Virus record (IMG/VR): IMGVR_UViG_3300013131_000280
Location: 1-21,644 of that record
DNA: 21,644 bases
Reading direction: 5' to 3' (one strand)
DNA from: a virus
The notes below the pieces were generated by a model. It did no database searches. It was not told the origin of the DNA and worked only from the letters and a program-made list of their open reading frames with translations. The translations under genes were made by a program, and so were the position numbers. Of this stretch, positions 11,497 through 20,789 are shown in pieces (position 1 is the first letter of the stretch; every line of letters starts with the position of its first letter).

Positions 11497-12258
11497 TTAT
11501 CCCACTAACATTTGAGGTGGTTCTTCGTATACATCTCTTAAATCGATTTCTAATTTTTCGATCGCGACTGATGCCTCGTCGTAGATCGTTTGACCGTTAA
11601 TTACTAAACCGCCAGGAAGAGTGTAGTTTCCATATTTCTTTAAGTTTGTACCCCACTGTTGTTTAAACAACTCGGTGGTGTATTTCTTTAGCCAAAAGTC
11701 ATCAAAGGCTTTACTGTAAGTTTCTGGATCGACAATACGATTTGCTTCGAAGCACATATAGTTCCCAGCAATAAACTTACCACCCCAGTCTGTTTGCACA
11801 TGGACTCGATTGGTTTTTTTATTATAGTTGTATGGATTTTCACCAGTAATAATCATATCCAGCATCGATAAATGCTCGCGCGCAATCACATAATAGGTAT
11901 ATGAAGACGCTGTGAGATTATAAAAATCGTTCAATCTCAACTGATAGTTGATATCGAACATATTAAACCCAGCAGAGGAGGTCGAAGACTGCGAGGCACC
12001 TGTGTATGGGAAAACTCTTGACACACCGATAATTGAATCAGAGAGTTGAACGTATCTATTCAGAATATCTGCACTCGTGAGTTTATGCGCAAGATAAGTT
12101 CGTTCGGTACCATCGAAATGAAACTCTCTAAATTTTTGTAATGCTTCATCGACACGATCGTCGAGCTGTTCGTCGTCGACATTGATATCAATTACTGGAA
12201 ACCCAAGTTTGCGGAGGCAGTAATCCTTGAGTTCTTGACGAGTGCTTGGTTTTGCCAT
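11497..12258 (-). CDS. gp13: Neck protein gp13
   Basis: This is a head-completion protein that works with gp14 at the head-tail joint. The protein has 253 residues, shorter than T4 gp13 (309) but normal for marine T4-like phages. The N-terminus MAKPSTRQELKDYCLRKLGF is the family signature, followed by DINVDDEQLDDRVDEALQKF and REFHFDGTERTYL. The C-terminal region has WLKKYTTELFKQQWGTNLKK then LPGGLVINGQTIYDEA. It starts the conserved neck-terminase-tail block immediately after the sugar-modification cassette and has a leader with an AGAGAGG ribosome site. Confidence 0.94.
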   Translation of the reverse strand: MAKPSTRQELKDYCLRKLGFPVIDINVDDEQLDDRVDEALQKFREFHFDGTERTYLAHKLTSADILNRYVQLSDSIIGVSRVFPYTGASQSSTSSAGFNMFDINYQLRLNDFYNLTASSYTYYVIAREHLSMLDMIITGENPYNYNKKTNRVHVQTDWGGKFIAGNYMCFEANRIVDPETYSKAFDDFWLKKYTTELFKQQWGTNLKKYGNYTLPGGLVINGQTIYDEASVAIEKLEIDLRDVYEEPPQMLVG

Positions 12259-12285: not shown

Positions 12286-12293
12286 TATTTAGT
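12286..12293 (-). promoter_or_regulatory. Possible late promoter ACTAAATA before neck gene 13
   Basis: The minus strand reads ACTAAATA, then TAC, 27 bases before the gp13 ATG. It overlaps the stop codon of the upstream glycosyltransferase gene. The same octamer lies before gene 18. It could separate neck-gene expression from the variable cassette upstream. Confidence 0.38.
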
Positions 12294-13038
12294 TCTCTAT
12301 TAACTTGCCATCTCGAGAAGAATAGACCAAGTTGGGGTCCATATGAGCAAACTGTTCCCAGTTCGGCTCACCTTCAAGTATTCGTTTTCCTGTCGACTCT
12401 TCGCCGATGTGTTCTATTAGATTTTCACCATTACGACCTTTTAATTGCGCTGAGAACATCTGATGAAAGAAATCTAAGAAAACCATAATCATTCCTTCGT
12501 TAATATTGAATCCCCAATACTCTCGGAAAGGATAATCTACGATCGATTTTTTATACAAACTAAAGATAATCGGAAATGTTTTTGTATTTTTACTATAATA
12601 AAAGTCGCCGAATGGAATATCACCCTCTTCAATTTTACATGGCTCTTCGTGGAAGTACCATGGTTGGCGTTGAAGAACCACAGACGCCATCTTCTGATTA
12701 GATTCTAGAACTGCAATCATGTCATCAATATGAATCGATCGTGTTAAAACAACATCATCTTCTTGATGCAAGACATAATCATAATCTTGTGTCTTTAGCC
12801 ATTCAAAGAAGCCAGACCATGTAACCGACAACCCTTTGTTTATCGTATTCAGCCACAATAAGGTTTTGTGTGTTTTTGCGAACAACTGAAAGATAGAATC
12901 GTTTCTTGTTCTAGGATAATCGTCGACGATTAATCTAGTGACATCATGATCCCCATAGTTGATTTTCTCGAGAGAGTCGAGTGTTTTCGTCAGATATTGC
13001 AGACGATTACATGAGAAAATTACATGAAGAATCTTCAT
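12289..13038 (-). CDS. GT2-like (GT-A fold) glycosyltransferase
   Basis: This is a probable nucleotide-sugar-dependent glycosyltransferase. The N-terminus ILHVIFSCNRLQYLTKTLDS followed by LEKINYGDHDVTRLIVDDYP is the beta-alpha-beta start of GT-A enzymes that bind nucleotide sugar. The segment DYDYVLHQEDDVVL places an acidic E-D-D (93-95) where the metal-binding DxD motif is expected. The downstream part contains aromatic-rich segments (QRQPWYFHEE, FREYWGFNINEGM) that may form the acceptor side. No membrane segment or signal peptide is visible, so it should act in the host cytoplasm. The start directly follows the stop of the DUF6445-like gene. The donor and acceptor cannot be read from the sequence. 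Confidence 0.82.
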   Translation of the reverse strand: MKILHVIFSCNRLQYLTKTLDSLEKINYGDHDVTRLIVDDYPRTRNDSIFQLFAKTHKTLLWLNTINKGLSVTWSGFFEWLKTQDYDYVLHQEDDVVLTRSIHIDDMIAVLESNQKMASVVLQRQPWYFHEEPCKIEEGDIPFGDFYYSKNTKTFPIIFSLYKKSIVDYPFREYWGFNINEGMIMVFLDFFHQMFSAQLKGRNGENLIEHIGEESTGKRILEGEPNWEQFAHMDPNLVYSSRDGKLIEN

Positions 13039-13596
13039 TTAGTATTCTGTATTAAAAAAGAAGGTTTGAAATAATCTTCCGTTTTCGAGATTGTTTCCGA
13101 AATAATCCACTGAGGCGTGATAAAGATTCCCTCGATACAATACGATACGATTATATTTGTTCGCAACGTAATCTACCATTTCCCATTTTGTATAATCATA
13201 TCCATCTAGATGCGGTTGGCTGTTATCTTTTCTTTCGTACTCTTGATTTTCTTTCCATCGATATAACGCTGTCCCCGCAGATAGCGGAGCGCCAGGAGTT
13301 AGATAACACACAGCAGCCCATGTATTGTGACTGTCGGCATGAATCCATGTGCGATCTTGCGCAGTGCAGATTTGAAACGCCCCAGTATATCCAGACTCTT
13401 CAAACCAATGTGTAATCTTACCACCCGCATTTTGCACGATATATTGAATCGATGATTTAAGGTCATCAGGAAGATATGGCTTTGTACGAAGTCCAGGATA
13501 ATTACCCGAAACCTCAAATTTAAGAGAAAGAGCAAATGCTCGTAATTGATCTGGATTACTATAAAAATCATCAACAACAATAAGTTTAGTTTTCAT
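13039..13596 (-). CDS. DUF6445-family, 2-oxoglutarate/Fe(II)-oxygenase-like protein
   Basis: The protein has 185 residues from the ATG at 13596. It matches my knowledge of DUF6445: the opening VVDDFYSNPDQLRAFAL, then NYPGLRTKPYL. Next comes WIHADSHNTWAAVCYLTPGA with an H-x-D pair (H86, D88), GTALYRW, NRIVLYRGNLYHAS with a distal His (H160), and GRLFQTFFF with an Arg (R174). An H-x-D...H...R arrangement is the iron and 2-oxoglutarate site of the double-stranded beta-helix oxygenases, so hydroxylation of a protein or sugar is plausible. The substrate is unknown. It sits between two glycosyltransferase-type genes, nearly back to back. An earlier in-frame ATG at 13656 lies inside the previous gene and is less likely. 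Confidence 0.85.
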   Translation of the reverse strand: MKTKLIVVDDFYSNPDQLRAFALSLKFEVSGNYPGLRTKPYLPDDLKSSIQYIVQNAGGKITHWFEESGYTGAFQICTAQDRTWIHADSHNTWAAVCYLTPGAPLSAGTALYRWKENQEYERKDNSQPHLDGYDYTKWEMVDYVANKYNRIVLYRGNLYHASVDYFGNNLENGRLFQTFFFNTEY

Positions 13597-13600
13597 AAGA

Positions 13601-13606
13601 TCACCT
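13601..13606 (-). promoter_or_regulatory. Ribosome binding site that decides the start of the DUF6445-like gene
   Basis: The minus strand reads AGGTGA, four bases before the ATG at 13596, and overlaps the stop codon of the upstream gene. This supports the 13596 start over the one at 13656 and suggests translation coupled to the upstream gene. Confidence 0.65.
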
Positions 13607-14357
13607 AGTAATACATAAATCTTGCTGACGTTCCATCCCAACCACAAACTCTCCAATCTGTTTCAATAACATCTTTTTCAAATGGGCGAGTGAGATAGTA
13701 GGAGAGAGTTTCAATATCATAATGCGACATCGGCTTTTTATTTAGAAGGTGTATCGCTGCCTCATTTATATCAATCATTCGTTCTAATTGCGAAGAACCA
13801 AATGCATACAAAACAGTGCAGTATTGATGGATTCGATTATTCTTTTGTTCTGCTCGCCTGTCAATGAATGAATAATTCCAAGAGTCATTCCATTCAAAGT
13901 TTAGCGGTCGTTTAAAAAAAATCTTGTGCAAATTTTGCACATTAAAAAGAGAATCATCCATCTCAAAATAGAAATATCGACCGCATGTTTTGATAACATA
14001 ATCGTATTCTTTAATTTCTTTTTTAAACTTCTTATAAAACGTATTCAATAAAAAAGATTCACACAAACTTTTATTTGGATGCGTGTTTACAATTTCAAAC
14101 GCTGACGCATCGAGTTCTTTAAGTGGAATAAATTCTGTATCTCTGAAAAATCTAAATGTATCTTGGTACTCTGCATAATCTTCTGAAGAATCGACAACAA
14201 CAATCTTGGCTCTAGGAAATGCTGCTCTGATTGAGTTAACAGTAAAAATTGTCTGACGAAATCTTTCTTCATTTGAGAAAACAGTACGCACTTTACTGTA
14301 TGTCAGTGGTGCGTTTCTTGTTTGTATTGATGATCCAACAATAAAAAGTTTATTCAT
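13605..14357 (-). CDS. Probable GT-A-like glycosyltransferase, family not recognised
   Basis: The protein has 250 residues. It begins with a short beta strand (NKLFIVGSSIQTR), then FTVNSIRAAFPRAKIVVVDS followed by SED, a Rossmann-like start as in GT-A enzymes. The segment EYDYVIKTCGRYFYFEMDDS carries K-x-x-G-R-Y (K123, G126, R127), which recurs in nucleotide-sugar-binding viral and bacterial transferases. An acidic M-D-D (133-135) follows. The C-terminal part HYDIETLSYYLTRPFEKDVI resembles the end of such enzymes, but I cannot name the family. It overlaps the GT4 gene by eight bases and is followed after eight bases by the oxygenase-like gene, so it belongs to the cassette. No signal peptide or membrane helix is visible. 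Confidence 0.72.
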   Translation of the reverse strand: MNKLFIVGSSIQTRNAPLTYSKVRTVFSNEERFRQTIFTVNSIRAAFPRAKIVVVDSSEDYAEYQDTFRFFRDTEFIPLKELDASAFEIVNTHPNKSLCESFLLNTFYKKFKKEIKEYDYVIKTCGRYFYFEMDDSLFNVQNLHKIFFKRPLNFEWNDSWNYSFIDRRAEQKNNRIHQYCTVLYAFGSSQLERMIDINEAAIHLLNKKPMSHYDIETLSYYLTRPFEKDVIETDWRVCGWDGTSARFMYY

Positions 14358-15345
14358 AAAAACTATTCTTTATGATCTTATCAAGATAAACTTTATGTTT
14401 GTGATGTATTTCCTCATCAGAGAAATTTAATCCCCATTCTCTACAATCAAAAGGTGAAATTTTATCAATTGATTCTATGGCGTTTAATAGAGATTTAAAA
14501 TCTCGTACACGATATCCTGTCTCACCTTCTAATACAATCTCAGGAAATGCACCCCAGTCTGTTGTAATGACTGGAGTGCCAGAAAGATTTGCTTCAATAA
14601 TCATATTGCCAAATGGCTCAACGTAATACGTTAATCCAAGCAATCCTTTGGCATTTTTCATCAACTGTTTTCGTTGTTCAGCATTTGCAACACCAAACAT
14701 CTCAACATGATCTGGAACTTTTTTATATCCTAATGGCTGTAACGATCCAGGTCCAGCAATAATAAGTTTCTTTCGCGTTTTTTCTGTGGCTTGAATGGCT
14801 AGATGCACACCCTTTTCTTCACACACTCTCCCAAAATATAAGAAATAATCTTCTTTCTTTTCGTTATATTCAAACTCACCAATCGTAAATGGATTCCCGA
14901 TTACTTCGTCATACCAAGAAGGATTCATAAGCATTCCGCGCTCACCGTAGAACATATGCATATTTGCATACGAAGTAAACACGCGATATGGAGCAAAAAT
15001 GCCATTTGCGCGATAACCAATTGAAGGCTCAACAGGTTTGCAGGTTGGATTCATTTCGCAAGCCAATTGATTATCTACACCAAAAAAACAGACAATCAAA
15101 TCGCCATCACTTGCGCGTTTGCGAATTTCTGCGCCAGCAATTTCATTAAATCGGTTGATTTCTTTTGGTGCGGTGTGAATGTCAATATGCTCGCAATCGA
15201 CCTGTGCGCCTGGAATTCCATAATGAATCATATGGAAGTGTGGCGATAAATGTTTGATGTATTTGTATGCATGAACCGCAAATGGGTCCACACGATTCAT
15301 CAATCCTGTTGGATTGCGAGGATTTACCAAAACATGGATCTTCAT
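14350..15345 (-). CDS. GT4-family (GT-B fold) glycosyltransferase
   Basis: This is a retaining glycosyltransferase with a two-Rossmann-fold architecture. The C-terminal half is diagnostic: YFGRVCEEKGVHLAIQA (170-186), KKLIIAGPGS (192-201) and the E-x7-E motif EPFGNMIIE (E243, E251). Then comes ANLSGTPVITTDWGAFPEIV followed by EGETGYRV, typical of GT4 nucleotide-sugar binding. The N-terminal half (1-150) is the acceptor domain. At 331 residues it is complete but compact. It is the first gene of the four-gene cassette after the heptad-repeat fibre and overlaps the next gene by eight bases. The sugar and acceptor are unknown; fibre, capsid or host surface polysaccharide are all possible. Confidence 0.93.
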   Translation of the reverse strand: MKIHVLVNPRNPTGLMNRVDPFAVHAYKYIKHLSPHFHMIHYGIPGAQVDCEHIDIHTAPKEINRFNEIAGAEIRKRASDGDLIVCFFGVDNQLACEMNPTCKPVEPSIGYRANGIFAPYRVFTSYANMHMFYGERGMLMNPSWYDEVIGNPFTIGEFEYNEKKEDYFLYFGRVCEEKGVHLAIQATEKTRKKLIIAGPGSLQPLGYKKVPDHVEMFGVANAEQRKQLMKNAKGLLGLTYYVEPFGNMIIEANLSGTPVITTDWGAFPEIVLEGETGYRVRDFKSLLNAIESIDKISPFDCREWGLNFSDEEIHHKHKVYLDKIIKNSFYE

Positions 15346-15371: not shown

Positions 15372-17270
15372 TTACTTGGCATCCTTCATTGTCAAGGTGC
15401 CCCAATATGTTGTACCACCATCATAAGTGATAAAAGTCCACAAGTCACGAGCATTTGCTGCTGTTGTTGCAGGAGGCGCAGAACCACCAGCCCAATATAC
15501 TGTATTCGCAAATGTTGGTGATCTTCCACCAGTACCATCTTGCATAATCAATAATGAGAATTGCTGAGCAGTTCCAGAAGATGGAGCATTAATAAAAGTA
15601 AATTGTGCGCTTGCAGTCATTACGCGACGGAAATAATTTGAGATTGACAAATCGCAAGTATTAGCACCATTTACATTCGTATTTGCTTCAAGGAAATCTT
15701 TATATGCTTTTAACGTTATTGACGTTGTGCCAGTACTAATATTATTTGCAGCAGCGTAAGCATTATTGGCTTGTCCATAAGCAGTATTCGCTTGATCACG
15801 AGCACTGTTGGCTTGAGCATAGGCATTAACAGCATTCGAGTTTGTATTAGTGATATTAGTATTAACTGTACCGAATGTCGTATTAACAGTACCAAAGGTT
15901 GCGTTAATTGTACCGAGATGGGCATTAATAGTTGGAATACCAAGTGCAGTACTGTTAGCAGTAAAGTCAACATTGGCTCTGCCAGTTGTTGAGTTAGCAG
16001 TTACAGAAACATTAACAGTTGCAGAATTATTAAAGTTTACATTTGCCTTTGTAATAACAACTGCGTCATTTGCATACACAGCAACTGTATTCGCTGCAGC
16101 ATTAGCCAAACCAGAGGCATAGGTATTTGCGCCAGAAATGTTTGTATTCAGAGTTCCAAATGTAGTATTTGTTGTTCCGAATGTGGTATTAATCGTTGCG
16201 AAGGTTGTATTCGCATCAGAGCGTGCATTATTTGCTTGAGCATATGCTAGATTTGCCTGACCATATGCTGAGTTCGCTTGAGCGTAACCAGCATTGGCTT
16301 GCGTATAAGCATCATTAGCAGTGTTGCGAGCGGTATTTGCTTGAGCATATGCTAAATTTGCCTGACCATATGCTGAGTTCGCTTGAGCATATGCATCTTT
16401 TGCTACGACATTTGCTTGATTTGCATTGATCAGAGCAATATTTGCCTGACCATATGCTGAGTTCGCTTGAGCATATCCTAGATTTGCAGAAGCATATGCA
16501 TCAAGAGCAGTATCGAAGGCATAGAAAGTTCCTTCGCCATCTGCCCATTTCCATTGATCAGCTGCTTCGTCCCACTTCAGAACAGCATTAGTAGATGATC
16601 CACGATTGATAGTAATAAATGCATCAAGTGCAGGAGCACCAGCCACATTTGAATTAAGGATAATCTCATTATCTTCAACGGAAAGAGTGTCAACATTTAG
16701 AGTAGTATAACTACCAAGGACTTCAAGATTACCTTGAACAACAAGGCTACCAGTAATCGTGCCGCCAGAAACACTAAGTTTTAGATTTGCTTCACCATAT
16801 GCACTATTAGCAGTATTGCGAGCAGTATTGGCTTGTCCATATGCGCCATTTGCCTGAGCATATGCACCGTTGGCTTGACCATACGCACCATTGGCAGTAT
16901 CGCGAGCAGTATTGGCTTGATCCCGAGCTGCATTGGCTTGATTATATGATGCCACAACAACTTCGTTTGAGCCTGCATTATTTGCTGCACTATATGCACT
17001 CTTAGCAATTGAGTCTGCAGTATTTGCAGCACCGTATGCATTTTGCGCTGTTGTTTGAGCAGTATTTGCGGCTGCATAAGCATCATTGGCAGTAGTGCGT
17101 GCTGTGTTTGCTTGACCTCGAGCAGAATTGGCTTGATCAGTAACATTCAATCCAGCAGTTGTAATAAATGTCATAGAATTTAAAGTGTTCGCGTTCAACG
17201 TCGTGACAGTCGCACCAACGTCGATTATCACGTTACCGTAAATTCTAGAACCGTCTTTTAATTTTGCCAT
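15372..17270 (-). CDS. Tail fibre-like virion protein with alanine/asparagine heptad repeats
   Basis: The protein has 632 residues. The N-terminus MAKLKDGSRIYGNVIIDVGA is a common start of marine phage fibre proteins. Heptads of the type A-Y-x-Q-A-N-x fill about 46-165 and 256-355, a second type T-F-G-T-x-N-T occurs at about 356-376 and 454-474, and A-Y-x-Q-A-N-x returns at 480-510. These suggest long trimeric coiled shafts. A beta module at about 166-255 contains LVVQGNLEVLGSYTTLNVDT then NEIILNSNVAGAPALDAFI, frequent in phage fibres. The C-terminal domain (515-632) looks beta-rich and could be the tip or a trimerisation domain. Near-identical DNA repeats lie within. It has a weak GAGAACG ribosome site and a near-consensus promoter. 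Attachment to host is inferred. Confidence 0.85.
   Translation of the reverse strand: MAKLKDGSRIYGNVIIDVGATVTTLNANTLNSMTFITTAGLNVTDQANSARGQANTARTTANDAYAAANTAQTTAQNAYGAANTADSIAKSAYSAANNAGSNEVVVASYNQANAARDQANTARDTANGAYGQANGAYAQANGAYGQANTARNTANSAYGEANLKLSVSGGTITGSLVVQGNLEVLGSYTTLNVDTLSVEDNEIILNSNVAGAPALDAFITINRGSSTNAVLKWDEAADQWKWADGEGTFYAFDTALDAYASANLGYAQANSAYGQANIALINANQANVVAKDAYAQANSAYGQANLAYAQANTARNTANDAYTQANAGYAQANSAYGQANLAYAQANNARSDANTTFATINTTFGTTNTTFGTLNTNISGANTYASGLANAAANTVAVYANDAVVITKANVNFNNSATVNVSVTANSTTGRANVDFTANSTALGIPTINAHLGTINATFGTVNTTFGTVNTNITNTNSNAVNAYAQANSARDQANTAYGQANNAYAAANNISTGTTSITLKAYKDFLEANTNVNGANTCDLSISNYFRRVMTASAQFTFINAPSSGTAQQFSLLIMQDGTGGRSPTFANTVYWAGGSAPPATTAANARDLWTFITYDGGTTYWGTLTMKDAK
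16231..16478 (-). repeat. Near-identical DNA repeats inside the heptad fibre gene
   Basis: About 53 bases at 16231-16283 recur at 16336-16388 with a single difference. About 35 bases of the same unit recur at 16441-16475. The offsets are 105 and 84 bases, which are whole numbers of 21-base heptads, so copies can recombine without breaking frame or heptad phase. Confidence 0.8.
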
Positions 17271-17329: not shown

Positions 17330-17557
17330 TTAAGTAGAGTTCAAAGTATAATCGTCAAAATAATTTGCGACTTGCATTAATCCATTTGCATGAATTCTGC
17401 GCGCAAGACCATCAGCGATTGGACTAATTGTCACCTCATCAAATTCTGCAGCAAAGAATGCTGTATCATTTGCTGACACAGCAGAACCAGTCACCTCATC
17501 CAGTTCACCCTTTATAAGAAGAATGCCTGTGTTATCAAGTCTTTCTGTAATTGCCAT
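17330..17557 (-). CDS. Small unrecognised protein with three F-D-E-V-T-like repeats
   Basis: The protein has 75 residues. Three short repeats stand out: GELDEVT (17-23), AEFDEVT (37-43) and NYFDDYT (65-71). Each follows a probable beta strand, and MAITERLDNTGILLIKG forms the start. Similar small proteins with repeated G-x-F-D-E-V-T occur next to fibre genes in marine T4-like phages, to my knowledge without a proven function. It starts one base after the stop of the collagen-like fibre gene and precedes another fibre gene. A small virion component, fibre connector or assembly factor is the likely role, by context only. Short length and tight coupling support it being a real gene. Confidence 0.75.
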   Translation of the reverse strand: MAITERLDNTGILLIKGELDEVTGSAVSANDTAFFAAEFDEVTISPIADGLARRIHANGLMQVANYFDDYTLNST

Positions 17558-17558
17558 A

Positions 17559-20500
17559 TTATAAGAACACTGTATCTAATGTTGCAGTTGATGTGTTGTA
17601 GTAAACAATTACCTTCACAGCTCCAGTTGTATTTGCATATGCAATATTATTTGCAGCCACAATCGTATTTGATGTTAACGTGCTCGTTGTTTTTGCAAAT
17701 GTTAGATTTGCATTTGCACCAACACTGCCGCCATCATTGAAGATAACTTGCGTATCAGATCCAGCAACTGGTCCAGTTGGTCCTTGAGGACCAGTCACAC
17801 CTTGTGGTCCTTGTGGACCTTGAGGACCCGCGACACCTTGTGGTCCTTGTGGTCCTTGAGGACCAACATCACCAGTTGATCCAATTGATCCTTGTGGTCC
17901 TTGTGGTCCTTGTGGACCTTGTGGTCCTGTATCACCAGTTACACCTTGTGGACCTTGTGGTCCTTGTGGACCAGTGACACCTTGTGGTCCCTGCGGTCCT
18001 TGTGGTCCAGTATCACCTTGAGCACCTTGTGGTCCTTGAGGACCCTGCGGTCCAGTGACACCTTGTGGTCCTTGTGGACCTTGCGGTCCAGTATCACCAG
18101 TGTTTCCAAGTGGACCTTGCGGACCTTGCGGACCTTGTGGACCTGTTGGACCAACATCTCCAGTCACACCCTGTGGACCTTGTGGACCAGTGTTACCAGT
18201 TACACCCTGTGGACCTTGAGGACCTTGAGGACCTTGAGGACCTTGTGGACCAGTATTACCTTGCGGACCTTGTGGACCAGGAACTGTTGAAGCATCACCT
18301 TGTGGACCTTGTGGTCCAGTGACACCCTGTGGTCCTTGTGGACCCTGTGGACCTTGAGGACCATCAACACCTTGTGGACCTTGTGGTCCTTGAGGACCAA
18401 TAACACCTTGTGGACCTTGAGGACCAGCATCACCAGTCGCGCCAGTAATACCTTGAGAACCTTGCGGTCCTTGAGGACCTTGCGGACCTTGTGGACCAGT
18501 TGGACCAGCGACGCCCTGTGGTCCTTGAGGACCTTGCGGACCAAAGTTACCTTGAGCACCTTGCGGTCCTTGTGGACCTGGAATTGTTGATGAATCGCCT
18601 TGTGGTCCAGTTGGTCCAATATCACCTTGTGGACCTTGTGGACCAGCAACACCCTGCGGTCCTTGTGGACCCTGTGGACCTTGAGGACCATCAACACCCT
18701 GCGGTCCTTGTGGACCTTGTGGACCAGTGTTACCAGTCGCACCTTGCGGTCCTTGTGGTCCTTGTGGTCCAGTGACACCCTGTGGTCCTTGTGGACCTTG
18801 TGGACCTGCTGGACCAACATCACTAATTTCAATCGTTCCACCCATTGATGAATGGAATTGACAAACATAATACAACGTGTTTGGAGCATTATAAGGAACA
18901 GCAAAAGTTATATTACCAGAAGCTGTTCCGCCATTTGTTACGCCACTGCTATAAACATTTCCAGAACTATATGCCCCCGAAACTGTTTGAATCCAGAATG
19001 GATGACCAGCGGCGTTTACATTTAAGATATAAGTAAATCCACGCAATAATCTAAGTGTTGGGTTACTGGACCCATCGATGGTATATGCGCTCGCACCACT
19101 GTTTGTAATAGTATATGTTCGAGCACCTGTTGTTCCTTGTGGACCTTGCGGTCCTGTGTTGCCAGTGACACCTTGAGGACCTTGTGGTCCTTGTGGACCT
19201 TGTGGACCAGTGTCACCTGTTGCACCCTGTGGTCCTTGTGGTCCAGTGACACCCTGTGGTCCTTGTGGACCTTGTGGTCCAGTGACACCCTGTGGTCCTT
19301 GTGGACCTTGCGGTCCTTGTGGACCAGTGTTACCAGTCGCACCTTGAGGACCTTGTGGACCAACGATTGCTCCAGCATCTACCCACGAAGCTGTTCCTGT
19401 ACTGTAAACATATAAGTGACCATTTGCTGTTACAATATATGCATCACCATCAGAACCACTACCAGGAAGATTACCAACTGTTGCAACAGTTCCTAAGATT
19501 GTAATGCCAGAACCCTGCACGCCAGTAGGACCTGATGGACCCTGTGGACCAGTGTTACCTGTTGCACCTTGAGGACCTTGTGGACCAGTGGAACCTTGAG
19601 GACCCTGTGGACCTTGTGGTCCAGTGACACCCTGTGGTCCTTGAGGACCATTAACACCTTGAGGACCTTGTGGACCATCAACACCTTGAGGACCTTGTGG
19701 ACCTTGTGGTCCAGTGACACCCTGTGGTCCTTGTGGACCTTGAGGACCTTGTGGTCCAGTGACACCCTGTGGTCCTTGTGGACCAGTGTTACCAGTCGCA
19801 CCCTGTGGACCTTGAGGACCTTGAGGACCTTGAGGACCTTGTGGACCTTGCGGACCTTGTGGACCAGTGACACCTTGTGGTCCTTGTGGACCTTGTGGAC
19901 CTTGTGGACCAGCAACACCCTGTGGTCCTTGCGGACCTTGAGGACCATCAACACCCTGTGGTCCTTGTGCACCAAGAAATCCTTGAGCACCCTGCGGTCC
20001 TTGTGGACCCTGTGGTCCTTGTGGACCTTGTGGTCCAGTGACACCTTGAGGACCAGATGGACCTTGTGGACCAACGATTGGACCAGCATCAACCCAAGAT
20101 GCAGATCCACTATTGTAAACGTACAAATGACCATCAAAGAGAACGATATATGCGTCACCGTCAGATGCGCCACCTGGAAGATTTGCAAAAGTTGCTACAG
20201 TTCCTAAGATTGTAATACCAGATCCAGCTGGACCCTGTGGTCCTTGAGGTCCTGTTGGACCAGTAGAACCTGCTGATCCTTGTGGTCCTTGTGGACCAGT
20301 ATCACCAGTGACACCTTGTGGACCCTGTGGACCGAAATCACCTTGAGGACCTTCTGGACCTTGTGGTCCTTGAGGACCTTGTGGTCCAACATTTCCTAAT
20401 GGTCCGATATCACCCTGCGGTCCTTGAGGACCCTGTGGACCCTGCGGACCTTGTGGACCTTGCGGACCAGTGTTACCAGTATTTCCAAGTGGACCCTGTG

Positions 20501-20789
20501 GACCTTGTGCACCTGTTGAACCTTGTGGACCTTGTGGACCTTGTGGTCCCTGTGGTCCTTGTGGTCCCTGTGCGCCTGTTGAACCTTGAGGACCCTGTGG
20601 ACCTTGAGGACCCTGTGGACCTTGTGGTCCCTGTGGACCAGCAACACCTTGCGGACCCTGCGGTCCCTGTGGACCACCTGATGGTCCTGTTGGTCCAGTA
20701 TCACCTTGAGGACCTTGAGGACCTTGAGGACCAGTGCTACCTGTTAAACCCTGCGCACCACGACCTGTTGAAACGCGAACTTGAGTCAT
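17559..20789 (-). CDS. Collagen-like tail fibre protein with globular inserts
   Basis: The protein has 1076 residues. Gly-x-y triplets, mostly G-P-Q, cover about 10-189, 240-426, 477-555 and 658-1008 and should form triple-helical rods. Between them lie two copies of a 50-residue module (190-239 and 427-476: [12 protein letters not shown] then LPG...DGDAYIV...HLYVY...SWVDAG). A cupredoxin-like domain follows at about 556-657, and a C-terminal 68-residue tail starts [20 protein letters not shown]. These modules are common spacers in marine phage collagen-like fibres. No lysine appears in the triplet regions; Thr is frequent in the y position. The start overlaps the upstream stop (ATGA). It is presumably an elongated host-binding or surface fibre; the exact location on the virion is unknown. 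Confidence 0.93.
17766..18818 (-). repeat. Collagen-like triplet repeat, C-terminal rod
   Basis: This is a 9-base repeat family encoding Gly-Pro-Gln, broken by units such as G-V-T, G-D-T, G-V-D and G-N-T. About 351 residues form the longest rod of the fibre. Codons vary (GGT/GGA/GGC, CCA/CCT, almost always CAA), so the DNA copies are similar but not identical. Confidence 0.95.
18819..19124 (-). other. Cupredoxin-like domain inside the collagen-like fibre
   Basis: About 102 residues (556-657 of the fibre) form a non-collagen island. It starts [20 protein letters not shown], then has a beta-rich body with [11 protein letters not shown] and ends [19 protein letters not shown]. His596, Cys643, His646 and Met649 are placed like the four ligands of type-1 copper proteins (C-x2-H-x2-M here, against C-x2-H-x4-M in plastocyanin). 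The fold is inferred from this pattern. Copper binding is unproven, and the shorter His-Met spacing is a reason for caution. Confidence 0.7.
19125..19361 (-). repeat. Collagen-like triplet repeat, short third rod
   Basis: About 79 residues of G-x-y triplets, mainly G-P-Q with G-A-T, G-N-T, G-V-T and G-D-T units, between the second 50-residue module and the cupredoxin-like domain. Confidence 0.93.
19362..19511 (-). repeat. Second copy of a 50-residue globular module in the fibre
   Basis: Residues 427-476 repeat the module at 20073-20222 with most positions identical: [42 protein letters not shown]. It is a small beta-rich spacer between collagen rods, probably a trimerising or registering element. 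That role is inferred. Confidence 0.85.
19512..20072 (-). repeat. Collagen-like triplet repeat, second rod
   Basis: About 187 residues of G-x-y triplets between the two copies of the 50-residue module, again dominated by G-P-Q. Confidence 0.93.
20073..20222 (-). repeat. First copy of the 50-residue globular module in the fibre
   Basis: Residues 190-239 of the fibre: [20 protein letters not shown], then [20 protein letters not shown] and SWVDAG. It pairs with the copy at 19362-19511, and the two look like an internal duplication. Confidence 0.85.
20223..20762 (-). repeat. Collagen-like triplet repeat, N-terminal rod
   Basis: About 180 residues of G-x-y triplets following a short non-collagen start (MTQVRVSTG). 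It includes G-S-T-G-A-Q units and one irregular Gly-Gly step near residues 38-39. Confidence 0.93.

What the first reader, a model, noticed from the sequence alone, without database searches (positions are those of the whole stretch)
13039..13596. DUF6445/2OG-oxygenase-like gene placed between two glycosyltransferase-type genes in a structural operon
Seen: conserved H86, D88, H160 and R174 positions, with family-like flanks. It is flanked by two transferase-type genes with almost no spacing and has a coupled ribosome site. The family's substrate is unknown to me. The company it keeps suggests hydroxylation of a sugar or of an amino acid that is then glycosylated.
Basis: partly seen in the sequence, partly recalled or inferred. 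Interest (0 to 1): 0.5.

Follow-up and report, generated by a model that had tools for sequence, protein, structure and literature searches.

The report
Phage oxygenase beside collagen tail fibre
A small gene in an uncultured virus of bacteria encodes what looks like an iron- and 2-oxoglutarate-dependent hydroxylase, set among three sugar-transfer genes and near a collagen-like tail gene, which suggests that such viruses may hydroxylate and sugar-coat their own collagen-like tail fibres.

Summary
The gene (minus strand, 13596 to 13039, 185 aa) matches Pfam DUF6445. H86, D88, H160 and R174 are invariant in 81 aligned sequences. A confident predicted model has the 2-oxoglutarate oxygenase fold. 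Both neighbours are glycosyltransferase-like: one by fold (GT6-like), one by weaker profile hits (GT2-like); a third such gene follows.

The gene lies 4 kb from a 1,076-aa collagen-like tail protein. All 22 close loci that reach far enough (window included) carry one. Collagen matches occur in 26 of 30 hand-picked viral records with this DUF6445 clade, some picked knowing this, against 0 of 50 and 3 of 43 control records. Eleven of 12 Burkholderiales loci have a collagen-like gene within 2 kb. Some relatives stand beside proteins resembling human collagen galactosyltransferase and lysyl hydroxylase LH3. Four cultured phages carry such a protein close to a lysine-rich collagen-like fibre gene.

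Best reading: DUF6445 hydroxylates a collagen-like tail protein and the glycosyltransferases decorate it. The fold is well supported; the substrate is inferred from gene company (about 45%); the residue is unknown. Kinship, habitat and record length confound the controls, and most phage collagens sampled lack DUF6445 nearby.

The parts
13039..13596 (-). DUF6445 protein P0001, 185 aa, 2OG-Fe(II)-oxygenase-like; HxD (H86, D88), distal H160, R174
12289..13038 (-). P0002, GT2-like glycosyltransferase (249 aa), starts directly after the DUF6445 stop
   Evidence: Pfam E 5e-4, under cut-off; PHROG 3047 E 7.7e-7
13605..14357 (-). P0003, 250 aa, GT-A glycosyltransferase fold, nearest GT6; no family hit by sequence
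14350..15345 (-). P0004, 331 aa, glycosyltransferase (Glycos_transf_1)
   Evidence: (E 2.4e-18)
15372..17270 (-). 632-aa repeat-rich fibre-like protein (AxxAN repeats, 0.9% Pro); Pfam Alanine_zipper E 3.6e-8; the gene at this place in many close relatives is itself collagen-like
17330..17557 (-). 75-aa ORF between fibre and collagen-like genes, no Pfam family
17559..20789 (-). Collagen-like tail protein, 1076 aa, 262 Gly-X-Y triplets in runs of six or more (163 GPQ), 2 Lys; candidate substrate
   Evidence: Pfam Collagen E 1.7e-112; PHROG tail and tail fibre families
11497..12258 (-). gp13-like neck protein downstream of the cassette (37% identical to the annotated head-tail adaptor of S-WAM2)

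Best explanation
The gene encodes an Fe(II)/2-oxoglutarate oxygenase that hydroxylates side chains of a phage tail-fibre protein, most likely the collagen-like protein encoded upstream at 17559-20789. The three adjacent glycosyltransferases (P0004 of the Glycos_transf_1 type, GT6-like P0003, GT2-like P0002) then build a glycan on that protein, probably starting on the new hydroxyl. Shown by computation: fold, conserved catalytic residues, conserved cassette, and association of this DUF6445 clade with collagen-like genes in phages and bacteria. Inferred: catalytic activity, the collagen-like protein as substrate, the order hydroxylation then glycosylation. Unknown: which residue is modified.
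For: Fold: model pLDDT 96.8; VIA-align best rows OGFOD1 Z 14.6 (2.5 A over 158 residues), PHD2 14.5, PiuC 14.5, P. putida prolyl-4-hydroxylase 14.4, tied within 1 Z. H86, D88, H160, R174 invariant in 81 of 81 aligned sequences. 22 of 22 close loci (window included, several near-identical) that reach the upstream tail gene have a collagen-like ORF. Pfam Collagen in 26 of 30 hand-picked records with this clade (25 over the cut-off), 14 of the 18 more distant ones; without the four of these already known to carry collagen, 10 of 14. Controls 0 of 50 and 3 of 43. Bacteria: 13 of 24 loci have Gly-X-Y runs, 11 of 12 in Burkholderiales; in 12 of the 13 genomes searched a Collagen match lies within 3 kb. 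Neighbours within two genes include GT2, GT25, GT10 and GT11 families (91 proteins); none among 61 immediate neighbours of the distant clade. L216, L206, L203 and L198 have a collagen-like gene upstream of DUF6445 and downstream a protein with GT25 and oxygenase parts; that of L216 matches LH3 (E 8e-33), mimivirus R699 (5.5e-31) and procollagen galactosyltransferase 1 (1.6e-21).
Against: Only 2 of 75 collagen-carrying viral loci drawn by DNA pattern have DUF6445 in the locus. In L077 and L079 the cassette (without the GT2-like gene) stands beside a fibre without collagen runs; collagen matches occur elsewhere in those records. Four of 30 records had no collagen match. In the TerL-anchored sample the 3 of 43 records with a P0001-like gene and the 3 of 43 with collagen do not overlap; two of the former end near the gene. 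Kinship, habitat and record length differ between case and control sets, and the case records were hand-picked. S-SSM7 and Sf-FS3 relatives sit in sugar-nucleotide clusters. Where an LH3-like protein is present it brings its own oxygenase, so DUF6445 is not needed for lysine there. No residue common to the partner collagens singles out a target. The collagen label is scattered on the tree (12 changes, shuffled mean 12.4).
Confidence: 0.45

Rival explanations
1. The oxygenase oxidises a sugar, sugar nucleotide or lipid-linked glycan, and the cassette remodels the host surface polysaccharide (O-chain) against superinfection.
For: Relatives in S-SSM7 and Sf-FS3 lie between glycosyltransferase genes near UDP-glucose dehydrogenase and epimerase genes. 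A gene with an FkbM methyltransferase domain is next to the relative in DSL-LC02. Glycosyltransferases of pelagimyophages, many of them in the host recognition cluster, have been read as O-chain modifiers (PMC7029224, passages).
Against: Several of the nearest folds are peptidyl hydroxylases, though ties within 1 Z include others such as PiuC. The collagen association is not predicted. No sugar-nucleotide gene was recognised among the eight window proteins scanned with Pfam.
Confidence: 0.25
2. It hydroxylates the adjacent AxxAN-repeat fibre or another virion protein, not the collagen-like one.
For: The 632-aa fibre gene is nearer than the collagen gene in the window, and L077 and L079 keep the oxygenase next to such fibres without collagen within 10 kb upstream.
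Against: In 18 of the 22 complete close loci the fibre gene at that place is itself collagen-like, and 11 of 12 Burkholderiales loci have a collagen-like gene.
Confidence: 0.15
3. It is an auxiliary metabolic enzyme acting on host metabolism or 2-oxoglutarate levels, and the neighbours are incidental.
For: Cyanophages carry many 2OG oxygenases, proposed to shift host 2OG (PMC3037559, passages) or to act in DNA repair (PMC9146016, passages). Distant DUF6445 members often sit beside other 2OG oxygenase genes.
Against: The position between glycosyltransferase genes in a structural operon is conserved in close relatives, and bacterial relatives stand beside collagen-like genes.
Confidence: 0.1
4. 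It is a virion protein, as the PHROG 1644 and RefSeq name 'minor coat protein' says.
For: PHROG 1644 match E 2.2e-37; the name stands in six records opened.
Against: All four catalytic residues are invariant in 81 sequences, and the fold is an enzyme fold. One paper search found no basis for the name among the six papers it listed.
Confidence: 0.04

Closest known systems
Pfam DUF6445 (PF20043)
   Same: Member by profile, over the curated cut-off
   Different: Pfam gives the family no function; no paper in the held library names it
Peptidyl-prolyl hydroxylases OGFOD1, PHD2, P. putida P4H
   Same: Same fold and HxD...H plus Arg pattern (the pattern in those enzymes is recalled)
   Different: 14-18% identity in their rows; Pro is 0-1% of X positions in three of 14 partner collagens, so Pro need not be the target
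Mimivirus and animal collagen lysine modification (L230, R699, PLOD/LH3, COLGALT1)
   Same: Collagen-like gene, 2OG oxygenase and glycosyltransferase together; some DUF6445 loci and four cultured phages hold an LH3- and COLGALT1-like fusion
   Different: No such fusion was seen in the window, its collagen has only 2 Lys, and its glycosyltransferases are Glycos_transf_1, GT6-like and GT2-like
Host recognition cluster of pelagimyophages (PMC7029224, passages)
   Same: Tail fibres and glycosyltransferases beside neck genes in T4-like aquatic phages
   Different: Glycosyltransferases read there as host O-chain modifiers; collagen repeats are mentioned but not linked to an oxygenase in the passages seen

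Membership tests
DUF6445 (PF20043) | Profile score over the gathering cut-off | tested here: met
   56.2 bits against 24; all 81 aligned sequences match at E 0.1 or better
2OG-Fe(II) oxygenase superfamily | Double-stranded beta-helix fold | tested here: met
   pLDDT 96.8 model; Z up to 14.6 against oxygenases
2OG-Fe(II) oxygenase superfamily | HxD...H iron ligands and distal Arg or Lys for 2OG | tested here: met
   H86, D88, H160, R174 invariant in 81 of 81; strand positions as recalled for the superfamily
2OG-Fe(II) oxygenase superfamily | Iron ligands converge in space | not testable with these tools
   No model coordinates were given
2OG-Fe(II) oxygenase superfamily | Relationship detectable by sequence profile | tested here: inconclusive
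   11 of 81 sequences hit PF13640 and 10 hit PF13759 at E 0.1 or better, best 2.3e-4 and 1.5e-4; hhalign with 8 phage oxygenases probability 1.4
2OG-Fe(II) oxygenase superfamily | 2OG- and Fe(II)-dependent turnover | not testable with these tools
   Needs an assay
Prolyl hydroxylases (P4H/PHD) | Hydroxylates peptidyl proline | not testable with these tools
   Window collagen has Pro in 69% of X positions; three of 14 partner collagens have 0-1%
Collagen lysyl hydroxylases (PLOD) | Lysine in Y position of the partner collagen | tested here: not met
   2 Lys in 1076 residues of the window collagen; Pfam files the protein as DUF6445
Collagen-like protein (PF01391) | Gly-X-Y repeats over the Pfam cut-off | tested here: met
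   E 1.7e-112, 262 triplets
GT6 glycosyltransferases (P0003) | Fold | tested here: met
   BoGT6a 4cjb Z 14.7 (3.5 A over 204 residues), bovine a3GalT Z 14.5; sequence membership not shown
PHROG 1644 minor coat protein | Presence in virions | not testable with these tools
   Profile match and name only

The most novel reading that the evidence does not exclude
Phages and some bacteria carry dedicated collagen-maturation cassettes in which a clade of DUF6445 is a hydroxylase of prokaryotic collagen-like proteins. It may act on a residue other than Pro or Lys, perhaps the Gln or Thr that often fills the Y position, creating attachment sites for glycans added by neighbouring glycosyltransferases. 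This would be a parallel to animal collagen maturation acting on tail fibres.
Probability: 0.3. Interest if true: 0.82.

Novelty: new variant of a known kind. Interest (0 to 1): 0.62.

Why it matters
Hydroxylation and glycosylation of collagen are usually taught as eukaryotic traits, with mimivirus the viral exception. If tail fibres of aquatic phages are matured this way, it would give a function to a clade of a family of unknown function and to part of the unexplained crowd of 2OG oxygenases in marine and freshwater phages. It would bear on fibre stability and host recognition, and the LH3-like version can be tested in cultured Synechococcus and Roseobacter phages. It could also supply compact enzymes for making modified recombinant collagen.

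Tried and rejected
PHROG name 'minor coat protein': kept only as a weak rival; no support seen.

Prolyl hydroxylation as the one shared activity: not adopted. Pro is 0-1% of X positions in L084, L336 and L211.

Gln in Y as a signature: Gln is 24-100% of Y in all 14 partner collagens and 0-48% in 20 non-adjacent bacterial Collagen matches, some of which may not be true collagens. But 67 viral collagens chosen by a Gln-containing DNA pattern have a median of 41%, so it is not specific, and that sample is biased.

Pandoraea-type DUF6445 as a common bacterial gene: no; 7 of 399 sampled genomes at E 1e-8, and the six apart from the query genome are only 30-36% identical. In one search, 20 of 300 genomes had any DUF6445. 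The 20 short loci from that search (2.2-3.7 kb) showed no Gly-X-Y runs, which is too little flank to judge.

gp13-anchored local control: 1 of 80 loci with collagen and 11 of 80 with DUF6445, the one with collagen (L447) having both (Fisher p 0.14 within that set). L447 was not among the 25 gp13-anchored records of the 0-of-50 control, which were chosen for length. With it the control would be at least 1 of 51; Fisher p for 10 of 14 against 1 of 51 is 6e-8 and against 3 of 43 is 5e-6. The other 25 control records had shown no collagen run in the locus when a sample of that clade was surveyed (0 of 42). TerL-anchored control: 3 of 43 for each trait and no overlap (43 of the 97 loci, chosen mainly for length).

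Tree: the count of label changes (12) equals the shuffled mean (12.4), so collagen adjacency is scattered, not one inherited block. All 13 positive rows lie on one side of a branch of weak support (71). Rows without collagen were dropped if the flank was short while rows with collagen were kept, and redundancy was reduced within each label, so the fractions are biased upward.

Searches that found nothing useful: PDB by sequence with P0001, NCBIfam with P0001, P0002 and P0003, DUF6445 in papers, near DNA relatives of the window in the phage collection (five records, short matches in the repeat-coding part).

Full report
What is there. The ORF is on the minus strand, 13596 down to 13039, 185 aa. 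It matches Pfam DUF6445 at E 6e-15 and PHROG 1644 at E 2.2e-37. It starts at an ATG preceded by an AGGTGA run that overlaps the stop of the upstream gene, and the next gene begins directly after its stop.

Fold and active site. An alignment of this protein with 80 relatives 22-85% identical to it shows H86, D88, H160 and R174 invariant, together with G35, R37, L99, G108, N149, R150 and F180. The model has mean pLDDT 96.8; H160 lies on the strand E158-162 and R174 at the start of the last strand, as recalled for this superfamily. Foldseek's first hit is OGFOD1 (E 7.9e-6). VIA-align gives OGFOD1 Z 14.6, PHD2 14.5, PiuC 14.5 and P. putida P4H 14.4. These are ties within 1 Z, and PHD2 fills much of the list because it has many entries, so the lean towards peptidyl hydroxylases is mild. 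By sequence the link is weaker: 11 of 81 sequences reach PF13640 at E 0.1 or better, and a profile comparison with eight phage oxygenases was inconclusive. Distances between the metal ligands could not be measured.

Neighbours in the window. P0004 matches Glycos_transf_1. P0003 has no family hit, but its model (pLDDT 93.9) matches GT6 enzymes over 204 of 250 residues (Z 14.7). P0002 has weak GT2 hits. Beyond them lie an alanine-zipper fibre protein and a 1,076-aa collagen-like protein with 262 Gly-X-Y triplets, 163 of them GPQ, which matches PHROG tail and tail-fibre families. The order fibre, P0004, P0003, DUF6445, P0002, gp13 recurs in close viral relatives, many of them fragments. Of window plus 80 loci, 72 were grouped with the anchor by the script and 9 loci were not; four loci (L077-L080) lack the P0002 gene.

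Collagen association in viruses. Twenty-two entries of this group (window included, several near-identical) reach the upstream tail gene; all 22 hold a collagen-like ORF upstream of the cassette. Thirty records with this clade were picked by hand, 12 from the close group and 18 others; 26 have a Pfam Collagen match (25 over the cut-off), 14 of the 18 others. Four of those 18 (L184, L201, L206, L216) were already known to carry collagen; without them it is 10 of 14. Nineteen records were searched with the window TerL: six matched, five of them over most of its length at 80, 51, 36, 32 and 32% identity, and those five have both DUF6445 and collagen, so several phage lineages are involved. Controls: 0 of 50 viral records (25 anchored on gp13, 25 with distant DUF6445) and 3 of 43 TerL-anchored records. 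Fisher p for 10 of 14 against 3 of 43 is 5e-6. Records differ in length, habitat and kinship, and one gp13 locus with collagen was outside the control (see Tried and rejected). Local survey: 8 of 42 cluster representatives at least 34% identical to P0001 have Gly-X-Y runs in the locus against 0 of 42 more distant ones. On a tree of 93 representatives, 13 of 36 rows on one side and 0 of 57 on the other have such runs within 5 kb, with the biases given under Tried and rejected.

Collagen association in bacteria. Thirteen of 24 have Gly-X-Y runs of eight or more; among 12 Burkholderiales loci (Pandoraea, Massilia, Roseateles, Paraburkholderia) 11 do, the exception being a 5.3-kb contig. Eight of these 12 are named Pandoraea strains and one a Pandoraea MAG, so they are not independent. 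Thirteen of the 24 were given to a whole-genome search; in 12 a Collagen match lies within 3 kb of DUF6445. In L323 (Pandoraea) and L325 (Roseateles) the order is collagen-like gene, a gene with weak PP-loop hits, DUF6445, and a radical SAM gene downstream (Pfam hit in L325; by sequence start in L323). Massilia L344 has the collagen-like gene directly upstream of DUF6445. This type is rare in the order.

Glycosyltransferase association. Ninety-one of 125 listed same-strand neighbours within two genes of this group were scanned: GT2 family 9, GT25 4, GT11 2, GT10 2, 2OG oxygenase PF13640 12; one protein can match several, the window's own genes are included, and 25 of 66 families were shown. 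Sixty-one of 74 immediate neighbours (one gene only) of the distant group gave no glycosyltransferase family among all 23 listed, and PF13640 14.

Collagen-maturation-like loci. In L216 a collagen-like gene, a 111-aa gene, DUF6445, a 75-aa ORF and a 635-aa protein with GT25, GT_PLOD (E 3.7e-43) and weak 2OG oxygenase hits follow one another. That protein matches human LH3 (8.4e-33), mimivirus R699 (5.5e-31), human procollagen galactosyltransferase 1 (1.6e-21) and a procollagen lysyl hydroxylase domain (6ax6, 1.4e-7) in the PDB. L206 and L203 have a GT4, GT25, OGFOD2-like fusion after DUF6445, L198 a full-length relative of it, L217 a truncated one, and L196 and L193 a split version before DUF6445. 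Five of these seven have collagen runs (not L196 and L193), with Lys in 27-57% of Y positions. L216 and L198 carry clear phage genes (tail fibre, portal) and L206 a virion structural protein match. Eleven isolate or single-cell records, some of them duplicates, hold a relative of the L216 protein. Four were opened (S-CAM9, CRP-6, S-8S55, S-PRM1), and all four have a fibre gene with collagen-like GQKGEKG-type repeats one to three genes upstream, Lys being 27-44% of Y. Three of these four are cyanophages with the same gene order. Their cassettes hold other annotated 2OG oxygenases (not in CRP-6); DUF6445 was not tested there, and one search places S-8S55's DUF6445 elsewhere in its genome.

Reading. 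An oxygenase placed with glycosyltransferases and a collagen-like tail protein in several phage lineages, and with collagen-like proteins in bacteria, is most simply a hydroxylase of that protein, with glycosylation to follow. Catalysis, substrate and residue are inferred. Lys is nearly absent from the window collagen (2 in 1,076). Pro is 0-1% of X positions in three of 14 partner collagens.

What is known. Papers seen as passages only: PMC7029224, PMC12619734, PMC9146016, PMC8968730, PMC3037559, PMC9301287, PMC9546862, PMC3368898. PMC9301287 reports viral prolyl 4-hydroxylase genes, says that collagen can be part of viral tail fibres and calls their use cryptic, so the general idea is not new. 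PMC3368898 states that bacteria and viruses lack the prolyl hydroxylases for collagen. DUF6445 appears in no paper of the held library. Of the papers listed (6 of 6; 9 of 9; 1 of 1; 20 of 309; 15 of 16; 8 of 2,607), no title or abstract start describes a collagen-modifying cassette in a phage. These are capped listings, and the library lacks most subscription papers.

Noticed in passing
18810-19097 (minus strand), inside the collagen-like protein: A non-collagen insert with a His and a C-x2-H-x2-M run recalls copper proteins; PDB hits to laccase, rusticyanin and auracyanin are weak (E 0.16-1.1).
   Followed up: partly
L216 6283-8187; S-CAM9 (L702), S-PRM1 (L705), S-8S55 (L704), CRP-6 (L703): Phage proteins related to the L216 protein, which joins procollagen-galactosyltransferase-like, LH3-like glycosyltransferase and lysyl-hydroxylase-like parts, near Lys-rich collagen-like fibre genes.
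   Followed up: yes
L323, L325, L344 (Pandoraea, Roseateles, Massilia): Bacterial loci with a collagen-like protein upstream of DUF6445; L323 and L344 have a 117-120-aa ORF after it, L323 and L325 also a gene with weak PP-loop hits and a radical SAM-type gene. Function unknown.
   Followed up: partly
L085 6699-8561 (S-SCSM2R); L084 5806-7956 (DSL-LC02): DUF6445 at the end of a 621-aa protein with TPR hits; the gene before DUF6445 in DSL-LC02 carries FkbM methyltransferase, radical SAM and SPASM hits and a borderline TPR hit.
   Followed up: partly
L234 5998-6573, L211 1819-2394, L189 1427-2011: DUF6445 behind an N-terminal region of about 115-140 aa that was not identified.
   Followed up: no
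L110 3461-3964 and the same ORF beyond it: 384-aa ORF with DUF6445 at residues 10-177 and about 200 further residues that look by eye like a second oxygenase.
   Followed up: no
PHROG 1644 and RefSeq records (L083, L086-L090): The name 'minor coat protein' stands on this oxygenase family in six records opened.
   Followed up: partly
L322 1-6312: A contig binned as an Actinomycetes MAG carries a like cassette (67% identical DUF6445, neck-type gene beside it); perhaps a phage contig and a host hint.
   Followed up: no
L337-L342: Actinobacterial DUF6445 relatives with no Gly-X-Y run in the locus; L338 and L339 have two DUF6445 rows each.
   Followed up: no
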